From Mya arenaria (Eukaryota > Mollusca > Bivalvia > Myida > Myidae): a stretch of DNA of 64,000 nucleotides. Location of the stretch: positions 30,570,738 through 30,634,737 of the forward strand of contig NC_069135.1 in assembly GCF_026914265.1 (NCBI RefSeq). The letters run 5' to 3'. The translations under genes and the position numbers were made by a program. This document shows positions 29,030 through 50,100 of the stretch, piece after piece. Position 1 is the first letter of the stretch. The number at the start of each line of letters is the position of its first letter. Under the pieces are notes generated by a model. It saw nothing but the letters and a program-made list of their open reading frames with translations, searched no databases and was not told where the DNA came from.

Positions 29030-30445
29030 GATGACAGACAGACAGACAGAAATGTTTATTGTCGTAAACATGTTATGTAACAGTTTCTTGAAAAAAATAT
29101 AGAAAATATAAACACACATATAAATATTCAGTATGGTCACAACGATTCATGGCCTAAATACAAAGAAAAGAGAATACTATAAGTGAGTTAAATTAAAGAA
29201 CAAAAAAATAATCAAAAATAAGGTATCAAAAAAGGGAAACAAGATACATATCAAAATCAAACTCTGGGGTATATATTAAATACAGTAATGAAGTATTATG
29301 GGAGGCTATTCACAAATGTCATAATACTTGAAAGATCTAAACGGTGTTATTAATTAAGGAATTTCTTAACATAAATGCTTGATTTATAAATTTACTTAAG
29401 CTACTTAGTATGCTTACGTTTTTTGATAACATTAGTTCGATAAACTTGTACATACTTGGGCTTCTAATATAATATCTTTTAATCATTTTTTTTCTGAAGT
29501 CATTATATACCGGACATATTATGATGAAATGATATTCATCTTCTAAATCATTAGAGTTACACACAGTACAATAACGTTGGGCTCTATCTATTCTATTTCG
29601 GCCATATCGGCCGGTTTCTATATGCAGTTTATGAGATGACAATCTTAGCTTAGACAAAGACATTCTTAGTTTCTTTGGTAAATACTCTAGGTAAAGTTTA
29701 ATTTCAAAATGTTCCTTTATTAGTTTATATGTGCATAAAGTACTACTATTGTTTATCCCTTTATACCATGATAGCTTAAACACATCGAACACTCTATTTT
29801 TAAACATAATATGAAAGTTTTTCAATTAAACTGAGTTTGGATTTAACCACACATATGAGAAACCATACATATCTAACAATGATTTACCTTATTGACCCAG
29901 TTGTTACGATAATCAAGGTTCCCTAACATGTCATTATATAATTCTTTTGTGATAATGTTGTCGGTAGAAATAGTTTTACACCAAAATTTTATAATCCTAG
30001 CATATCTATTGACGTATAGAGGGTATCTACCTATTTAACCGTAAACGGCCATGTTGCATGAACTCGTTTTAACACTAGAATATATTTACAAAATTTAAGA
30101 TGAATTCGCTCGATCTCTTTCGATTTTGAAAATCCGCATATCTCAGACCCATGATTCAACGTGGCCCCAACCAAGGCGTCAAACAATTGACAATGAACGC
30201 TAGGCTTAAAATTGTAATGCTTTGTATTATTCATAAGTACATAAAGAGCCTTAATACCTTTCCCAGCTATGGATTCTTGGTTTAAAACAAAGGACCCGAT
30301 GACAATGCCACCCAAAACGTTGGCATAGCCAAGAAAAAATATGGCAGTGACAACAATTTGAATGGCAGTCATGTGACCGCCACAAAATAGATCGTTTATA
30401 GGAATTAATAGCAGCCATTTTTGAAAAATATGTAACTGATACAAA
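29030..30445 (-). mobile_element. LINE 3' fragment with CCHC-type C-terminus
   Basis: Minus-strand translation gives, in order: FDALVGATLNHGSEI and HLKFCKYIL, then YPLYVNRYARIIKFWCK, FHIMFKNRVFDVFKLSWYKG, and LRLSSHKLHIETGRYGR followed by CTVC-x9-H-x4-C, the C-terminal end of a common invertebrate non-LTR ORF2. It spans three frame segments with stops between ~29826 and 30031, so it is dead and 5'-truncated. The 3' end has a (CTGT)n tail at 29034-29051. It lies between the rearranged block and P450 copy 2. Confidence 0.8.
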
Positions 30446-31308: not shown

Positions 31309-34300
31309 ATGATGTACATCGGTCAGCTATTGATACCAGCAGACTGGACAGTGTTAGCACTGCTTGCTTTGGTCAGTATATTGACTGTCGTTTACGTCAC
31401 TTCCGCTTCATCGTCTCGCAAGCTACCCCCAGGACCAAAGCCCTGGCCGATAGTTGGTAAGTCAAGGATCGTTCAGGTATATATATATACAAATAAGCAT
31501 AGTAATTAAATAGATTAAGACCGGTTTTCAAACAAGAGCTGTCATAGGAAAGTGGATATTGTTTACCCGCTGGTCATTTCCAACCAGCTCGACAAGTATG
31601 AGGTCTCTGGGCCTTAGCATTATTCATTAATTGATCGGAAACGATCTTGACCCTTGTCCCACTGATTCAAAGGTTGTGGTTGTCGGACTTATCGTTCCTT
31701 AGATATTGATCGGGAACTGCTGTGACAGACATACGGTCCTGTTCTAATCATCCGCCGGTTTGGGTCCAACAAAGATTTCTAAACTTCGATAATGGTTTAC
31801 TTGTTGTTTAAATAAGACCGAATATTTAACATCTTACGAATACAACTGAAAGTGACAACGGTAAGATGCATTGATAAATAATCCATTTTTAATTTATGAT
31901 TAGGAATTGAATAACAAAATGATATAATTATCTGTTTTTCTTTTTATAACTGTACACAATAATTAAAAAAACAAAACAAATAATACCTTCAGGCAACCTA
32001 CCTTACATACGTCGTCAAAACAAACCCATGTTCGAGGTGATGCTTACGTTACGCCAACAGTATGGTGACGTTGTGAGGTTGAAACTCGGTCCAAGCCTTA
32101 ATTTTATCTTCATCATGGGAAAAGATAACGTTTACAAGGCGGCCGTGGATATGAAAGACAAATTTAAATTCAGACCAAATAATTTCTTTGCCACTAACTA
32201 CATATTTCAAAATAAAGGTAAGCGAACAGTAAACTGTAGTTTAGCTTTCGTGGATATGGATTTATTGTATGAAAAATGACTATATCACGATATAACGTTG
32301 AAAATATTGCTTTGTGTAGGAAAAATGACAATTAAAATCATTTTATCAAGTTTTAGCATTTGGCTGATGATACAAGTGTATTGAATCACTCCTAGCTGTC
32401 AGTGATCAGTCTGATTTGATCGAAGACGGGTTGTTTTCCAAAAGAAGAGGGAACACTACGCTTTGGTTTTAACATACGTTGAGGCGTGGCTGTGTAGTTT
32501 AGGTTCTCAATTAATTGTTGTGTAAAAATTCCGGAAAGTTATTACTACAAAGTAATTCAGTTAAAAACATGAGTAGGTTATTAAACATCGAAGTTGTTCA
32601 TGACAATAATGTTTTGTACGAAAGCAAATGATCAAACATTCAGCTTTAATAAAATGTTAAAACAAGACTACCATTTGTCTAAGAAACGGTATGTTTTTTT
32701 TCTCCAAATATCTTTATTTAAACGCATGCTACATTTTCATTTCAAATAATTATTTTGAAAAAAACAACAGCTTTTCATAAATATGGAATTGAGTTTTGAT
32801 CAAGAGGAAGTAACTACAACATATTTTTAAGTAGTTTTTGAACTTGATATTTACACGCCTTAGATTGCAGTGAAACTGTTGATATTTCACTGATAAAACT
32901 TCTATTAAATAACAGAACAACTGGTCAGTGGATATGACTGAATGGCTTCAATAATAAGTTGAAACCTATTTTTAGTTGAATGCCATTTTTACATATTTGC
33001 ACTCATATATTGAATGAGTCTAAATGTATCGAAATCCTTAAAATTTTAAATGAACATTTATAATCAATTCATTTCCATGCCTGTATTTACTTGTATTAAG
33101 TAAAAGAAGTCCCGTAATATAGCTAATAAAGGGAGAAAACAGCCTTTCCTTTTTGTTGAACGAAGTTGATTTTTGTGTCAGTCATCTCTGTTGGTATTTT
33201 TTTAAATGTTCTATTAGCATTGGTCAAGGGAAACAACTCAGTATTGTCCTTACAAATTATTGTCCTTAGAAAGAACTCTACATCAATACTCAATCGCTGC
33301 AGGTATACTTTCGGCAAACGGCGCCGAACACACTGCTCTCCGGAAGTTGATTCTTGTGACGATGAGAGACTTTGGAGTTGGCCGAAAGTCACTGGAGGAA
33401 TGTATACAGGAAGAGGCTAGGCTGTGAGTATTAAGAACAAATACATCGAAAAATAACACAACCATCATCATCATCATCATCATCATCATCTTTTTTATTT
33501 CTAAAAATCGCGTTTCCGGTGTATTTGACTTATGCCGATATAAATTATGTCGTGGCGCCGTTCACCTGTCAAGGTATAGTTATTTATGCTCTTACATTAT
33601 GAGGACATAGTTTGTTCTTAAGAATACTCATTATGTTGATTGAATGTGTAATACAGGTTGTGTGATCTTATAGAGAGCAAGAAGGGTCAGCCAACGTATT
33701 ACCTAGACAACTTTAAGATGGGTGTGTCCAATATCGTCGCTGGTATTGTGTACGGAAACAGGTAACTGTAGTCCTTCCGAGTGTTTAATATCTGCAATGC
33801 ATGATGAAGCGCGTTAAATTGATACTATTGTTTATTGTATGACGACTTCTTACATATCATATAAATATAGTATAGTTAACGGGCGTTTTAGGTCGAACAC
33901 GCCATTGCCGTTGTTGCATACTGTATGCATTGATATACAGCGTGTTTATTATTCAACCAACGTAACGCAATTTCCCTAATTCCAGGGGGGAGAATCGAGC
34001 TTAACCTAAGCATTCAAACAAGATGGCGGCGCCCATGTAAAAGGTGAGTTTTTCGGCGATTTAAAATTTTGGAAGCCAGTTTAGACACTGGCATATTGTG
34101 AAAAACCTGCTAGAGAAAATTCCACACCCATTGGTACTTGGATCTCCATGAAACATGCTGTAGTTTTGTCAAACATTCGGACATCGGCATCGACTCGAGA
34201 GGAAAACGAACTAAAAGGCACGGCTAAGGTTAGGATCCCTCGATAATATTGGCATGTTTTGACGATTAGCAACACTATTCATGATTGTTGTGTCAAGTTG

Positions 34301-37300
34301 GTGCAATATAAATGTGTATTGATCAACAGTTATCCGTCTAGAAACCCGTAATGACGCATTTGCTTCAAAATTAGTATTTATGCACAATGCTAAGGAGCAG
34401 TGCACGCAAATAAGTGGCTAAGGTTAGGTGCCATTTATTGAGAGAGGCGTTCATTACCTACGGTAATTTTGTTTCCTGTTTGTATCTGTTCTTTCTGAGA
34501 GATTAAAGGTTTCCGTAACACTGTGCGACATCATCATTATCCAGATGAGGTATTTTGAAACTGCCAAATTTGATTTCGCTGTGTTTTCATCTGGATACAG
34601 TTGAGAAAAAACTACAGTGACGCGATGTTGTGGATGAAAATCGTCTGTTTTGAACCGTAATGTTTAAGTAGAAGGTTCTTAATGATCTAATAAACAGACT
34701 CTTGAACAAATAATATTAATCTGCCTAGACCACCTTTAAAATTTATTTGTATGTAACACTATAAAAAAGTTACCAAACCTCATAAGTTAAAACGTGTCTT
34801 TTTTCTTTGCAGTGTAAACACAAGTACAAGATGGTGCGCCAGAAGTTGTCTCTTGGGCGGTATACCAGAAAAACAAAACATCGACGGTTTCGGACATCAG
34901 GTACTTGCGATGTACTAAATCTATCAAATGTTTATAAGCGCAAATGGACCAAAACACCAATTAAGTCTCCCTACAAGAGCCCGTTTTACACAGTTCGGCA
35001 TTTTTCACCTGCAAAGAAAAAAGTGAAAGTCGCCCGTCCTCTATTTGGAACGTCTTCTGAATGCCAGACAGATGCGGAAAGTTCATCAATAGATAATGCT
35101 GACCTTGAACTAATTTTGCCAAATCTGCCAGAGGAAAACAGTTCAGTGCCAGAGGAATACTACAATTCAGTGCTAGAAGAAAACAGTTCAGTGCCAGAAG
35201 AATACAATTCAGTGCCAGAGGAAAATAGTTCAGTGCTTGAAAACATTTCACTTCTTGAAGAAAACAGTTCAGTGACAGAGGAAAACACTAACTCTTTTTT
35301 AAACCTAACCAGCAGTATTTTCCTCTGGCACTGAATTGTATTCCTCTGGCACTGAACTGTTTTCTTCTAGCACTGAATTGTAGTATTCCTCTGGCACTGA
35401 ACTGTTTTCCTCTGGCAGATTTGGCAAAATTAGTTCAAGGTCAGCATTATCTATTGATGAACTTTCCGCATCTGTCTGGCATTCAGTAGACGTTCCAAAT
35501 AGAGGACGGGCGACTTTCACTTTTTTCTTTGCAGGTGAAAAATGCCGAGCTGTGTATAACGGGCTCTTGTAGGGAGACTTAATTGGTGTTTTGGTCCATT
35601 TGCGCTTAGAAACATTTGATAGATTTAGTACATCGCAAGTACCTGATGTCCGAAACCGTCGATGTTTTGTTTTTTTGGTATACCGCCCAAGAGACAACTT
35701 CTGGCGCACCATCTTGTACTTGTGTTTACACTGCAAAGAAAAAAGACACGTTTTAACTTATGAGGTTTGGTAACTTTTTTATAGTGTTACATACAAATAA
35801 ATTTTAAAGGTGGTCTAGGCAGATTAATATTATTTGTTCAAGAGTCTGTTTATTAGATCATTAAGAACCTTCTACTTAAACATTACGGTTCAAAACAGAC
35901 GATTTTCATCCACAACATCGCGTCACTGTAGTTTTTTCTCAACTGTATCTAGATGAAAACACAGCGAAATCAGATTTGGCAGTTTCAAAATACCTCATCT
36001 GGATAATGATGATGTCGCACAGTGTTATGGAAACCTTTAATCTCTCAGAAAGAACAGATACAAACAGGAAACAAAATTACCGTATGTAATGAACGCCTCT
36101 CTCAATAAATGGCACCTAACCTTAGCCACTTATTTGCGTGCACTGCTCCTTAGCATTGTGCATAAATACTAATTTTGAAGCAAATGCGTCATTACGGGTT
36201 TCTAGACGGATAACTGTTGATCAATACACATTTATATTGCACCAACTTGACACAACAATCATGAATAGTGTTGCTAATCGTCAAAACATGCCAATATTAT
36301 CGAGGGATCCTAACCTTAGCCGTGCCTTTTAGTTCGTTTTCCTCTCGAGTCGATGCCGATGTCCGAATGTTTGACAAAACTACAGCATGTTTCATGGAGA
36401 TCCAAGTACCAATGGGTGTGGAATTTTCTCTAGCAGGTTTTTCACAATATGCCAGTGTCTAAACTGGCTTCCAAAATTTTAAATCGCCGAAAAACTCACC
36501 TTTTACATGGGCGCCGCCATCTTGTTTGAATGCTTAGGTTAAGCTCGATTCTCCCCCCCCTGACGAAATGGAACGCATTTGCCTAGCACGTTATAATACT
36601 AGAAAGTAAGTTCCGCAGATATAATATCATTACACATACATTGCTATTTGTTTCAAAATAACTATCTAAATAGAAATATATTAATGGCTATGGCTTGCAA
36701 TTTCCTTGACGTATACGTTTTTGTTTCTGATAATGTACTCCTTGAACTGAGCAAGGGTTTGTTAATTTAACTTGACATTGCGCTTGTATTCATAACATTC
36801 TTAGTTAATATCGAAAACTCTCTTGATAGGTTTGAATATGGGGACCCTACGTTTCTAAGGATATTAGGCAATATCGGCACATTTTTTAAAACCCTGAGCA
36901 TATTTCTTCCTGAGAACTACTTCCCGCTTCTACGTTTCCTACCCGGATCAAAGGTAGTTAAGTTAATGTAAACATTTACACTATAGGTTCGATAACTTCA
37001 ATAATATAATGGCATTATGAGTATTTATCATTAAATTTTATAGTATATAAGATTACCCCAGCCTTTTTATAAGCAAAGCGAAAATGAATGTTCGATCATT
37101 TGCTTTCATTACCTAATCAGTTAATGGCGCTGTTCAACGTGTACAAAGATCTGGAAGCATACGCGAAGTCCAGAATTGACGAACATCGGCCGACTTTTGA
37201 CCCAGATAATTTGAGAGACTTTGTCGACATTTATCTGAAAGCAGAACAAGAAGGGGACAAAACTCTAACGGGTATCGGATAAATATGTGTAATCGCACCA

Positions 37301-43462: not shown

Positions 43463-44985
43463 AATGTGAAACTTGAAACTTGAAACTTGTTTATTTGATT
43501 AAACGCCTAATTTTATAAATATACTCAATGGCGTTGTACACAGTAATGTAAACAAATATAAAATCGACATCAATACAATTTCATAAAACACACGAAGCAT
43601 ACTTAAGACAGGTAAATGCGACATTATAAAAATAAAATGCGATTGTGTGAAAAATAAAAAAGAATAAGTTAAATTAAAACTTGTATGTGTCTACTATAAA
43701 ACTTGAAAGCGTCATACCCAAAAGCGTCATATACCACAATGTGAGTACTGTGTGGCCCATATTCAAGAGTATCGTAGAATATATTTTTTAAAATATACAT
43801 GAAATAATATAAAAATAAATGTTGAACAAAACAGAAAATGATTTGGGCCAAAACAGTCCGCCCACCAACACTGTGTTTATTTAGAATAATGCATAGTAGT
43901 CCCTGAAGTAATGCGTTTTCAAGTTTTTCTTAAAGCAGTCTGAAGATACCGAGTTCCTGATGTTACTTGGAAGCTCGTTCCAGAGTTTCGGACCAACGGT
44001 ACTGAAACTCCTATCGGCGAAAGTCTTTCTTTTATTGAATGGTATTTTATAACATCCTGAAGTTTGTGTTGAGCGTAGATTGCGCTTGTGTCGTTGTTCT
44101 TCAAGAAGTTCGGTAAGGTACTCTGGAGCGTTTCCAACTGAGCAGCTGTACATAAAAGTTAAAATTTTGAACGTGATTCTAGCTTTCACAGGTAACCAGT
44201 GCAGATCGTATAAAGCTTGTTTGGAACTATCATATCGAGAACGAGATAGAACGAGTTTTACGCACATATTTTGTATACGCTGCATTTTCTGTATGTCGCA
44301 CTGGGCTATCCCATAGAGAATGACGTTGCAATAGTCAAGGTGGGACATGACTAGGGATAACACTAGAATTTCTGTTGCTTCTTTCGTCAAATATTGTCCA
44401 ATGCTCTTTATTCTCATGTAATTCAAAATAGCAGGGCGGCATTTTCTTTTCACGTGTTCTTTAAAATTCAATGTTTCGTCAAGGAACGCCCCTAGGTATC
44501 TTACACAGTTTTCTGCTTCGATGTTATCACCAACAACATTGATTGGCAGTCAGTTGAGTATGACTGCCAAACTTGATAAACTCCGTTTTGGAAGCGTTCA
44601 TCTTTAATTTGTTCTGATTCATCCATTCATTGATTATTAAGGAACATTGTTCGAGTTCATGTTTAGCATTTTCTTCGGTGCTAGGATCGCTCGGGCAGAA
44701 TTGTTTATCGGCAGTGTGATCATCTGCGAAACCATGCACAGTGATAGATGGCGGTATGACGTCGAATAACGTCCCCGCATATGCTAGGTACAACCAAGGG
44801 CCGAGACAGCTTCCTTGTGGGACACTACATTCAAGTGCACGTGACCTGGAATAAGGTGAACTGACATTGACCCTACAAGTTCGAGGACGCAAATAGGAGT
44901 CGATCCAGTTCAGTGCTGTCGAATAGATTCCATACTATTTGTTCAGTACGTCTGTTAGAATGTGACATGTCTCATGTCTATACAA
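43463..44985 (-). mobile_element. LINE 3' half: RT domain end and C-terminus
   Basis: Minus strand 44985-44527 translates to the reverse-transcriptase palm end: YSTALNWIDSYLRPRTCRV, SVPQGSCLGPWLY, then FADDHT (the FADD active-site box) and NQNKLKMNASKTEF. After a frame change, 44471-43881 gives SHLDYCNVILYGI, RIQNMCVKLVL, LHWLPVKARI, LWNELPSNIRNS and a stop, the usual end of CR1/L2-like LINE ORFs. A ~420-bp 3' region ends in (CAAGTTT)n at 43466-43490. It is 5'-truncated and interrupted, so dead. It is inserted in unit 2 between segments that are adjacent in unit 1 (~21840/21900). Confidence 0.82.
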
Positions 44986-47188: not shown

Positions 47189-50100
47189 TCAATACTGAGG
47201 CATGCGTTCAAAGAAGGGTATCTGCGTCAAAGACACTTTATACCCTCTAAGCCATCTTGGCCCAAGAACTATCTTGTCCTTGTTTACATCCTTCCAAACG
47301 CCTCCGGGTACATAAATGTCCCGAACCGCCTCATTGCGCTCCACCGCCTCGCAGAAGATGGGTGCCACCAGATATGTGTCTGCCAATACAAACTGGTCGC
47401 CAACGGTAAAGGTGGCGTCATCAGCGCGTTTACGCCACCATAGCGGCTCCATTACAGGCTCGCCCGCTAGGATACGACCCTGCATCCCATAAATTGCGTC
47501 CATAACTACGGTGGAATGGAAAATCGTTAGATTCCTCGAAATTTCAACGACACCGACGTCGTAGTGCCAGGGTTTGATAGTGTATCTCATGGCCGGAAGG
47601 AATGCGGACAGTTGCATCCACCGGATATATAATTCTCTGCTGGGATACCTGGCTATATCATCTTCGTCGTCGTGATCAACATCGAATCCATCGGACATAA
47701 CGAACGGGTACCCCATTAAACCGAGATTGAGAATATCAGGAATTATATTTTTCAAACACTTTTGGCCATGCGTCTCGACGATTGACGATGGTAATGCAAT
47801 TAGATGCGAAATATGCTGAGACTGAGAGGTACTCTCTACTATTGAGTTCCCAAGTGTTGAGACCATATCAGAGAACATTTGTTTTAATTGGTTAGGATTC
47901 ATTTCGTCAATATGAAAAACTGGCTTGTGTGGTATCCAAGATGAAGTCCCGTAGGCGAACCGGAATGTCTTGATGTCATATTTCTCTGCTATGGTTCGTA
48001 TTTTAGACATGTACCATTCACGTGCAATCGGATTCGAGACGTCAAGCATGACGCCAACGCCATGTTCCCAACGTAGAAGTGCCGGTACTGAGCCACCGAA
48101 GTCTTTGACGAAATAATCTTTGTTAAGTCCCTCTTGGAAATTAACAGAACGAAAGCTGAAGAACGGGTACAAATTCAGGGACATGTCACAATTTGTCTGT
48201 TTAATAGACGTCGTAAGATTTGTAAGATTTTTGAAATGATGTTGACTGAATGTAAAATCTCCGAAATTTGATTCCCATTTGCCATCCAGTTCCAGAGAAC
48301 TGCAGTTTAGTTTATTTCTAATAAGCGACGTCGCAACGTTTTGTATGACACTTTCGTTCAGTTGAAAATCATCAGCGTCCCAAACAGTCGACCAATGAGG
48401 ATATTGCAAGAATGATCTTTCTGGCATTGCCGTAACGGTTGGGAAGTACGTTTTTCGAATGAAACTGTGGGTATCCCTTATGTTTACCCCATTACAGACA
48501 GTGTATTTAAAAGTCTTGAGATACATGTCGTCATGGTGATAAAAATCACCGGTATCTTTACCAATAATACAAAACGCACCGACCCGTCTCCGGTTCCAGC
48601 TAATTTCCAAGGGGTAGTTGGAATCAACTACCACTGCTTCGCCGTTTGAAGAAATCCAATAATATTCGATGGCTGAAGTGAACGTTCCGCTTCCATGATG
48701 TTTGGCTCTGTTTACGGTGAACCTAAAGCCGTCATGTCGTATCGGCCACTGACTTTCGCTCCGATTTCCAGGCCCGTACCAGTAACCACTTCCGATGTTG
48801 TAACAATCAAACGGCGCTGTTCCGTGCTGCATATTCCACGTTACGTTATAGCACTGTGTATTGTTCACTACAAAGTGACTTATATCCAATCTTCCATGTT
48901 CTCGCCACTTTAAACACGTTTTGTCCAAAATCTGCGCGTAATCTGGATAACAATGCGTAGGATTTTTCCACGAAGGTATGTCAAGCCCTAATGCCCCAGA
49001 AAATGTATCGAGCCCGGCGGAATCGCCCAATGTTAGTACCCGCTTCTTTCCGTCGAAGAAGACCTTCTGTGCAGATTGGACGTACTCGTGGTGTTCACTG
49101 TGGAAATGGAGACCAACGACGACGAAAGTAAGCGTCAGCAAGAACAGGAAAAGGACCAACAAGTGCAGTTTATACTTCTCTACCAACCGCTTCCGTTCGG
49201 ACCACATCTGCAATAAAGGACATGTGCTATAAGTTAAATAGACTTACAGGTAACACGTTTTAAGGGTGAAATGGTTCCTAGTGGTTAAATGTTTTCAAAC
49301 CATATGTTTAAGGTTATTTGGTTCTACTGGTAGCATGTTTAAAATGCGCAATGTTTACTTGTAGCAGATTTTAAACGTGAAATAGTCCTACTTGTATTCT
49401 CTTATTTTAAAGTAAAATGGTCCTACTTGTTTTAGAGTGAAATTATTTTACTTGCAACATGATTTTTAAACTGAAATTGTTTCTATTTTTGCAGCATGTT
49501 TTTAAAATTAAAAATGTTTAACTTGAAGCATGTTTGAAAACTAAAATGGTCCTATTTAAAGCATGTTTTTAAAAAGTGAAACAGTCCTACGTGTAGCAAA
49601 TTTTTAAAAGTGAAATTGTTTTACTTGAAGCATGACTTTGAAAGTGAAAAGGTCATACTTATAGCAGGGTTTTATTAGTGTAATGTACCTACTTGTAGCA
49701 TGGTCATACTTAAAGCATTTTTGCTTAAGTGAAATGCACTTATTCCATTGTCGTACTTTCAACAACTTTTACAAGCGTTATGGTCCTACCTGTAGCAGAG
49801 TCTTACTTGTTACATGTTTTTGAAAGTGAAATGGTACAATTTGTAACATGTTTTACAAGTGCAATGGTCCTACTTGCAGCATGTATTAAAAATGAAATGG
49901 TCCTACTTGCAGCATATTTTAAAAGTGAAATGGTCCTACTTGCAGCATGTATTAAAAATGAAATGGTCCTACTTGCAGCATGTTTTAAAAGTGAAATGGT
50001 CCTACTTGCAGCATGTATTAAAAATGAAATGGTCCTACTTGCAGCATATTTTAAAAGTGAAATGGTCCTACTTGCAGCATGTATTAAAAATGAAATGGTC

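What the first reader, a model, noticed from the sequence alone, without database searches (positions are those of the whole stretch)
33984..36561. 2.58-kb near-perfect palindrome, each arm with the same protein-coding frame
Two ~1.24-kb arms with few mismatches flank an ~88-bp spacer, inside an intron of an intact P450. Both arms keep the same ~130-residue frame open (very basic head, CQTD, acidic VPEE repeats), with only conservative changes between arms. Ordinary MITEs do not keep coding frames. This suggests a foldback transposon made of two inverted 5' ends, or a new family with extremely long coding inverted repeats. Its intronic location means the P450 pre-mRNA would carry a ~1.2-kb hairpin, a natural source of dsRNA (siRNA or ADAR editing).
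Basis: partly seen in the sequence, partly recalled or inferred. Interest (0 to 1): 0.85.

Follow-up and report, generated by a model that had tools for sequence, protein, structure and literature searches.

The report
Transposon with two mirrored left ends
A 2.6-kb mirror-image stretch inside a clam-like cytochrome P450 gene is a crippled jumping gene made of two copies of the same end, most likely a product of faulty DNA repair; its parent family may be unusual because its enzyme seems to carry an extra DNA-chewing domain.

Summary
The palindrome is real: 1243-nt arms, 99% complementary, 88-nt spacer; outer ends CAGGGG/CCCCTG at 33983 and 36562. The ordinary element has ~669-bp inverted repeats and distinct L and R interiors. 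One 11.2-kb copy has both ends, a 5-bp target duplication and a broken gene of which the window ORF is the N-terminus. Of 16 parsed copies, 11 have exact 5-bp duplications (0 of 240 mismatched pairs); the window copy has none. The window's L|L junction recurs at two loci (L012, L013); another L|L (L015) and an R|R junction at six loci exist, so end-duplication recurred and, most simply, some products transposed. Drosophila Galileo '2RT' copies are the same kind (PMC3573991, passages). The open frames need no selection: 5 of 6 codon differences are replacements. Two relatives have 1350-1386-aa frames with a YqaJ exonuclease domain apparently inside a P-like RNase H domain; the P link is weak. 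My searches listed no such fusion. Known kind of derivative; the family looks undescribed.

The parts
33983..36562 (.). whole element (2580 bp): L-L palindromic derivative, termini CAGGGGG...CCCCCTG; no target-site duplication (AATTC / ACGAA)
33984..34652 (+). left copy of the ~669-bp terminal inverted repeat
   Evidence: 34 of 74 rows end at arm position 669
34653..35227 (+). L-specific interior, left arm (rest of predicted intron and start of the coding exon)
   Evidence: (query 34660-35150): 14 rows at 11 loci, all 12 candidates scored
34044..34812 (+). predicted intron (AG|GTGAG ... CTTTGCAG|), most of it inside the terminal repeat; no RNA evidence
   Evidence: sequence signals only
34831..35334 (+). 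left-arm frame: N-terminus of the transposase-like protein (basic head, CQTD, VPEE repeats); runs past the junction into antisense
   Evidence: matches L032 and L033 proteins, E 3e-7 and 3e-5 in a two-sequence comparison with composition correction off
35228..35315 (+). spacer: 88 nt of further L sequence belonging to the left copy; joins the right copy with a 3-nt overlap (TAT) by eye against the window's own left arm (BLAST against L014 leaves a 5-nt gap)
35305..35712 (-). right-arm copy of the same N-terminal frame
35316..35890 (-). L-specific interior, right arm
35891..36559 (-). right copy of the ~669-bp terminal inverted repeat
33218..33424 (+). open frame holding the P450 exon candidate upstream of the element
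   Evidence: PF00067 profile 77-123, E 0.0016, below the Pfam cut-off
37088..37279 (+). open frame holding a P450 exon candidate downstream of the element (a nearer candidate, 36771-36968, had no Pfam match)
   Evidence: PF00067 profile 195-258, E 0.0002, below the Pfam cut-off

Best explanation
The palindrome is a non-autonomous derivative of a cut-and-paste DNA transposon with ~669-bp terminal inverted repeats (TIRs). In it the right end has been replaced by a second, inverted copy of the left end with ~570 bp of adjoining gene sequence. Shown: two L ends; the same junction at other loci; a separate R-R junction at six loci; 5-bp target duplications; an 11.2-kb copy with a broken transposase-like gene. 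Inferred: the end-duplicated forms arose when the gap left by excision was repaired from a template copy and, because the two TIRs are nearly identical, both broken ends copied the same end of the template; synthesis stopped inside and the ends were joined with little or no homology. Some products kept working termini and were moved again by transposase supplied from elsewhere. The ORFs are remnants of the first coding exon and stay open because the duplication is recent.
For: L-specific sequence lies at 11 loci (14 rows, all 12 candidates scored); R-specific sequence at 34 clusters, 13 with it in both orientations (52 rows; 40 of 61 candidates scored, so lower bounds). Junctions: L1316|L1237 in WIN, L012 and L013; L1095|L976 in L015; R1439|R1290 in L019 (with an extra rearrangement), L020, L022, L023, L036 and L037, in both orientations; an L1170|R1274 deletion in L009, L010, L011 and L018. 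Overlaps or fillers are short: 2 nt (L015), 1 nt (L020), 5 nt (L010) overlap, 3 nt in WIN by eye; 2-22 nt filler in L021, L024, L027 and L028. Exact 5-bp target duplications in 11 of 16 parsed copies, 6-bp in 2, 0 of 240 cross pairs at either length; end-duplicated copies L013, L015, L019, L020, L022, L023 and L036 are among those with a duplication. Longest copy: 11,238 bp with CATAT duplication. Galileo 2RT copies show TIR1-F1-F1-TIR2, and its authors proposed repair of one TIR from the other (PMC3573991, passages).
Against: The window copy has no target duplication, so its own arrival by transposition is not shown directly. L012 and L013, which share its junction, each lack a full second arm. 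The window arms are closer to L015, which has a different junction (left arm 13 of 1095 and 10 of 976 sites), than to L012 and L013 (21-29 of ~1246), and both arms share variants absent from L012 and L013 (arm positions 26, 345, 741, 1109); this needs gene conversion or a more complex history. Within-copy TIR divergence is below that to the nearest other copy in only 6 of 14 copies. Breakpoints do not separate gap repair from snap-back synthesis or recombination between copies. Duplications round a palindrome could also be left by conversion of an existing insertion. No intact gene of this subfamily was found (one copy; the next near-full-length match is 46% identical).
Confidence: 0.8

Rival explanations
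1. The palindromes form by snap-back (fold-back) synthesis or by recombination between two copies, not by wrong-end gap repair.
For: Every junction can formally be read as one arm turning back on itself after a loop (88 nt in WIN; 119 in L015 and 149 in the main R-R form). Absence of a target duplication in WIN resembles Galileo chimeric copies, which have unlike flanking 7-mers (PMC3573991, passage). WIN arms are closer to L015 than to L012 and L013, which exchange between copies could explain.
Against: Snap-back synthesis would be expected to run on into inverted host flank; end-duplicated copies L015, L019, L022, L023 and L036 instead have target duplications on unlike flanks. Recombination leading to a large inversion would have broken the P450 gene, whose matched exons continue in order.
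Confidence: 0.3
2. The palindrome or its frames are kept by selection: a coding foldback element, a repressor peptide, or a hairpin RNA regulating the P450 gene.
For: Frames are open in both arms; arms 1243 nt long and 99% complementary within an intron could form dsRNA if transcribed.
Against: 5 of 6 codon differences in the arms are replacements, 76% expected with no constraint; chance of no stop 0.71 to 0.50. L009, L010 and L011 have shifted frames. No RNA data were available.
Confidence: 0.07
3. Assembly artefact (one arm duplicated in reverse).
For: The missing target duplication and the general risk with inverted repeats.
Against: The junction recurs on two other contigs (L012, L013), the arms differ at 13 of 1246 aligned sites, and end-duplicated forms are common (13 of 34 R clusters).
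Confidence: 0.03

Closest known systems
Galileo 2RT ('two recombinant TIR') copies, Drosophila mojavensis (PMC3573991, passages)
   Same: Long TIRs extended by an inverted copy of the adjoining internal region from either the F1 (5') or F2 (3') side; non-autonomous; some copies lack matching target duplications
   Different: Galileo has 7-bp target duplications, here 5 bp. In the passages seen, the recruited F1/F2 regions are spacers outside the transposase-coding segment; here the arm includes the start of the coding exon. Those passages mention no YqaJ domain
P element / THAP9 transposons (PMC7776569, passages)
   Same: Weak RNase H similarity: PF21787 just above cut-off in one relative (25.2 vs 24.6 bits); the first-Asp region aligns with clam P-like proteins (E 0.016 but HH probability only 2.8%; 0 of 100 decoys reach it)
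   Different: 5-bp not 8-bp duplications; no THAP or GTP-binding domain match in Pfam; a YqaJ domain lies between the two RNase H-like pieces
ISL2EU (PHIS group; PMC4482050, passages)
   Same: Carries a YqaJ exonuclease domain
   Different: ISL2EU has AT 2-bp duplications and, in most autonomous copies, YqaJ in a separate ORF; here duplications are 5 bp and two relatives have one ORF

Membership tests
Galileo-type 2RT (end-duplicated TIR derivative), as a kind | TIR extended by an inverted copy of adjoining internal sequence, giving TIR1-F1-F1-TIR2 or TIR1-F2-F2-TIR2 | tested here: met
   L-L junctions in WIN, L012, L013, L015; R-R junction in six loci
Galileo, as a family | 7-bp target duplications | tested here: not met
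   of 16 copies 11 at 5 bp, 2 at 6 bp, 0 at 7 bp
P superfamily | P-type RNase H catalytic domain | tested here: inconclusive
   PF21787 25.2 bits in L032 (cut-off 24.6), 16.3 in L014 (below); E<=0.05 in 3 of 6 members. Joined segments: 29.4 bits L032, 23.3 L033, below cut-off. Clam P-like profile by HMMER: 0.3 bits for L032, -2.3 for L033. C-terminal segment with the supposed Glu: no Pfam match. No P entry among PDB hits
P superfamily | 8-bp target duplication | tested here: not met
   0 of 16 at 8 bp
P superfamily | N-terminal THAP domain | tested here: not met
   no THAP match at E<=0.5 in L032 or the L014 N-terminal ORF
P superfamily | GTP-binding insertion domain between second Asp and Glu | tested here: inconclusive
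   no Pfam match in L032 though ~500 residues lie there; structure not predicted
ISL2EU | YqaJ domain | tested here: met
   L014 E 6.6e-7; L032 and L033 segments 37.3 and 32.3 bits, cut-off 22, though the full-length L032 scan did not report it; PDB 3syy, named Exonuclease, E 0.0093
ISL2EU | 2-bp AT duplication and YqaJ in a separate ORF | tested here: not met
   5-bp duplications; single frames of 1386 and 1350 aa in L032 and L033
MITE | short (usually <600 bp), very high copy number | tested here: not met
   2.6 kb; copies counted in tens, a lower bound

The most novel reading that the evidence does not exclude
The parent family is a separate P-related group of transposons whose single protein carries its own lambda-type (YqaJ) resection exonuclease inserted in the RNase H fold between the first and second catalytic aspartates; by resecting excision gaps this nuclease promotes strand invasion of the wrong TIR and so drives the frequent L-L and R-R end duplication seen here.
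Probability: 0.12. Interest if true: 0.75.

Novelty: new variant of a known kind. Interest (0 to 1): 0.45.

Why it matters
The palindrome shows a TIR transposon repeatedly turning into end-duplicated foldback forms, some of which appear to have moved again, in an animal far from Drosophila. That gives an independent case, with several traceable junctions, for how foldback elements and very long TIRs arise. The parent protein, if the domain reading holds, would add a transposase with a built-in exonuclease and bear on how such elements process their ends. The P450 intron copy is a natural test of whether a 1.2-kb intronic hairpin makes siRNA or edited RNA.

Tried and rejected
Assembly artefact: rejected, because the junction recurs at other loci. 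Selection on the frames: no support. Relatives in viral or prokaryote collections: one scan each with A1, by two short peptide patterns each, confirmed none. TIRs around the relatives L032 and L033: a scan for 20-nt ends plus direct repeats gave only chance-like pairs, so these two relatives are not shown to be mobile. PDB sequence searches: no P-element hit; one exonuclease at E 0.0093. Filing it as ISL2EU: rejected on duplication length and ORF layout. Filing it as P or Galileo: not done, because duplication length (and THAP for P) failed. Structure prediction was not submitted: its stated rule lists window proteins and loci from other tools, and the relatives came from the fetch from genomes. 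Literature on a fused P-like/YqaJ transposase: searches (15 of 16 papers listed; 16 of 17 listed; 15 of 317 listed) showed none in titles and abstract starts; passages only were opened in a few papers; the library holds open-licence PMC papers only.
Full report
The two arms (33985-35227 and 35316-36558) are 1243 nt long and 99% complementary, 88 nt apart. Reading outwards to the terminal C and G gives an element of 2580 bp, 33983-36562. It lies in an intron of a P450 gene on the + strand: of eight exon candidates scanned, six match PF00067 and do so in order, two upstream (profile 11-123) and four downstream (195-461); two of the six are below the Pfam cut-off; one N-terminal and one downstream candidate had no match.

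The genome (G000, 1.216 Gb, 18 contigs) holds many relatives. A search with the left arm gave 74 rows, with 40 of 90 candidates scored, so this is a lower bound; 34 of the 74 rows end at arm position 669. I take that as the ordinary terminal inverted repeat (TIR). Beyond it lie two different interiors. The L interior, which the window arms carry, is at 11 loci (14 rows, all 12 candidates scored). The R interior is at 34 clusters, 13 of which hold it in both orientations (52 rows, 40 of 61 candidates scored).

I examined 24 copies: 20 loci (one of them, L014, extended with L031 and L035), three loci, and the window; 23 were mapped onto the two ends of the longest one. That longest copy is 11,238 bp, has both TIRs and a CATAT duplication, and carries the gene in broken frames, probably with later insertions. 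Its N-terminal frame is the window ORF continued. Four copies (L009, L010, L011, L018) share one internal deletion, L1170|R1274. The window has L1316|L1237; L013 has the same junction and L012 has it in the opposite orientation, each with part of one arm lost. L015 has another L-L junction, 1095|976. Six copies (L019, L020, L022, L023, L036, L037) share R1439|R1290, in either orientation; L019 has an additional rearranged piece. L021 (689|1026) is a further R-R form; L038 (1139|1439) may be a deletion of the main one; in L024, L027 and L028 one arm ends inside the TIR, so its end of origin cannot be told. L016, L017, L025 and L026 are one-ended.

Target duplications: 18 of the 24 copies had both ends; two (L010, L037) could not be parsed and were dropped. 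Of 16, 11 have an exact 5-bp duplication and 2 a 6-bp one, against 0 of 240 mismatched left-right pairs at either length. WIN, L021 and L027 have none at the set boundary; L021 would have TTTAC if its left boundary were moved by one base. The simplest reading is that palindromic copies transpose as units, since one R-R junction sits at several sites with different duplications; the window copy lost or never had its duplication.

Sequence history. The window arms differ at 13 of 1246 aligned sites; they differ from L012 and L013 at 21-29. Several variants shared by both window arms are absent from L012 and L013 (positions 26, 345, 741, 1109), although the junction is shared, and the window arms are about as close to L015, with its other junction, as to each other (left arm 13 of 1095 and 10 of 976). 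So exchange between arms and between copies is likely, and the descent of the window copy is not simple. In the TIRs, divergence between the two ends of one copy is lower than to the nearest other copy in 6 of 14 copies, equal in 2 and higher in 6.

The frames. Inside the arms 6 codons differ, 5 replacements and 1 silent; 76% of random changes would be replacements and 5.6% would make a stop, so 6 to 12 changes leave the frame open with probability 0.71 to 0.50. In L009, L010 and L011 the same region is frame-shifted. There is no sign that the window frames are maintained.

The parent protein. A protein search of the genome (71 candidates, all scored) found one copy of this subfamily; the next near-full-length matches are 42-46% identical, and shorter partial matches reach 58%. 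Two relatives have single open frames of 1386 and 1350 aa (L032, L033). The window ORF aligns to the start of both (E 3e-7 and 3e-5 in a two-sequence comparison with composition correction off). A YqaJ exonuclease domain matches in L014 (E 6.6e-7) and in isolated segments of L032 and L033 (37.3 and 32.3 bits, cut-off 22), though not in the full-length L032 scan. The best PDB match is 3syy, named Exonuclease, E 0.0093; that it is of the lambda type is recalled. PF21787, the P-type RNase H N-terminal half, matches L032 residues 774-851 at 25.2 bits (cut-off 24.6), and L014 only at 16.3. The missing first-aspartate part appears ~420 residues upstream, before the YqaJ domain: profile comparison with eight P-like proteins of the same genome aligned L032 297-355 to their 'DEMSIQ...LVGF' region (E 0.016, HH probability 2.8%), a score that 0 of 100 decoy profiles reached. 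The same P-like profile used in HMMER gave only 0.3 bits for L032 in that region and nothing there for L033. Joining the two pieces raised the PF21787 score of L032 to 29.4 bits and extended the match, but left L033 at 23.3, below the cut-off and not extended. The third acidic residue (E1345 in L032) is my reading of a conserved GETFFSE motif; the L033 segment holding it had no Pfam match. Catalytic residues and the GTP-domain insertion of the P element are from PMC7776569 (passages). So the YqaJ part is firm, the P-type RNase H part plausible, the insertion of one in the other a hypothesis.

Mechanism. I think the L-L and R-R forms come from repair of the gap left by excision, both broken ends copying the same end of a template because the TIRs are nearly identical, followed by end joining. 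The occurrence of both kinds, unequal arm extents, and junctions with 1-5 nt overlap or 2-22 nt filler fit this. The authors of PMC3573991 proposed repair of one TIR from the other for Galileo (passages). It is inference here.

Comparison. As a derivative it is the Galileo 2RT kind. I do not file the family under P or Galileo (5-bp duplications; no THAP match), nor under ISL2EU (PMC4482050, passages: AT duplications, YqaJ in a separate ORF in most autonomous copies). In two bivalve papers YqaJ genes are listed among viral or recombinase-like domains (PMC7826175, PMC10225492; one passage each). A survey of 27 bivalve genomes classed transposases with profiles of 17 superfamilies including P (PMC10294476, passages; YqaJ does not occur in its main text).

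Source organism. Size, 17 large contigs and a 17,947-base contig 18 whose first 1.5 kb encodes a COX1-like frame (recognised by me) fit Mya arenaria (1.22 Gb, 17 scaffolds; PMC10663159, passages). This is inference.

Noticed in passing
L012:3491-5230: The 45-bp unit of the VPEE coding repeat is expanded to about 36 tandem copies in frame, giving a 705-aa open frame that crosses the palindrome junction.
   Followed up: partly
G000 C7:8976774-9002099: R-end hits are arranged as a mirror image (two R-R palindromes and two flanking R ends in opposite order), suggesting a ~25-kb inverted duplication of host DNA around these elements.
   Followed up: no
G000 C8:43743345, 43789611, 43814601 and C5:59736666, 60086675: Same-strand R ends not far apart on one contig; may be local duplications rather than separate insertions.
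   Followed up: no
window 47189-49240 (-): Single 683-aa open frame matching glycosyl hydrolase family 31 (PF01055 E 8.5e-23).
   Followed up: no
window 43881-44934 (-) and 29337-29825 (-): Open frames that look like fragments of non-LTR retrotransposon reverse transcriptase (recognised by eye, not searched).
   Followed up: no
G000: 39 matches to P-type RNase H (PF21787), all marked over the cut-off (70 of 70 candidates scored), many in open frames, so ordinary P-like elements are also common in this genome.
   Followed up: partly
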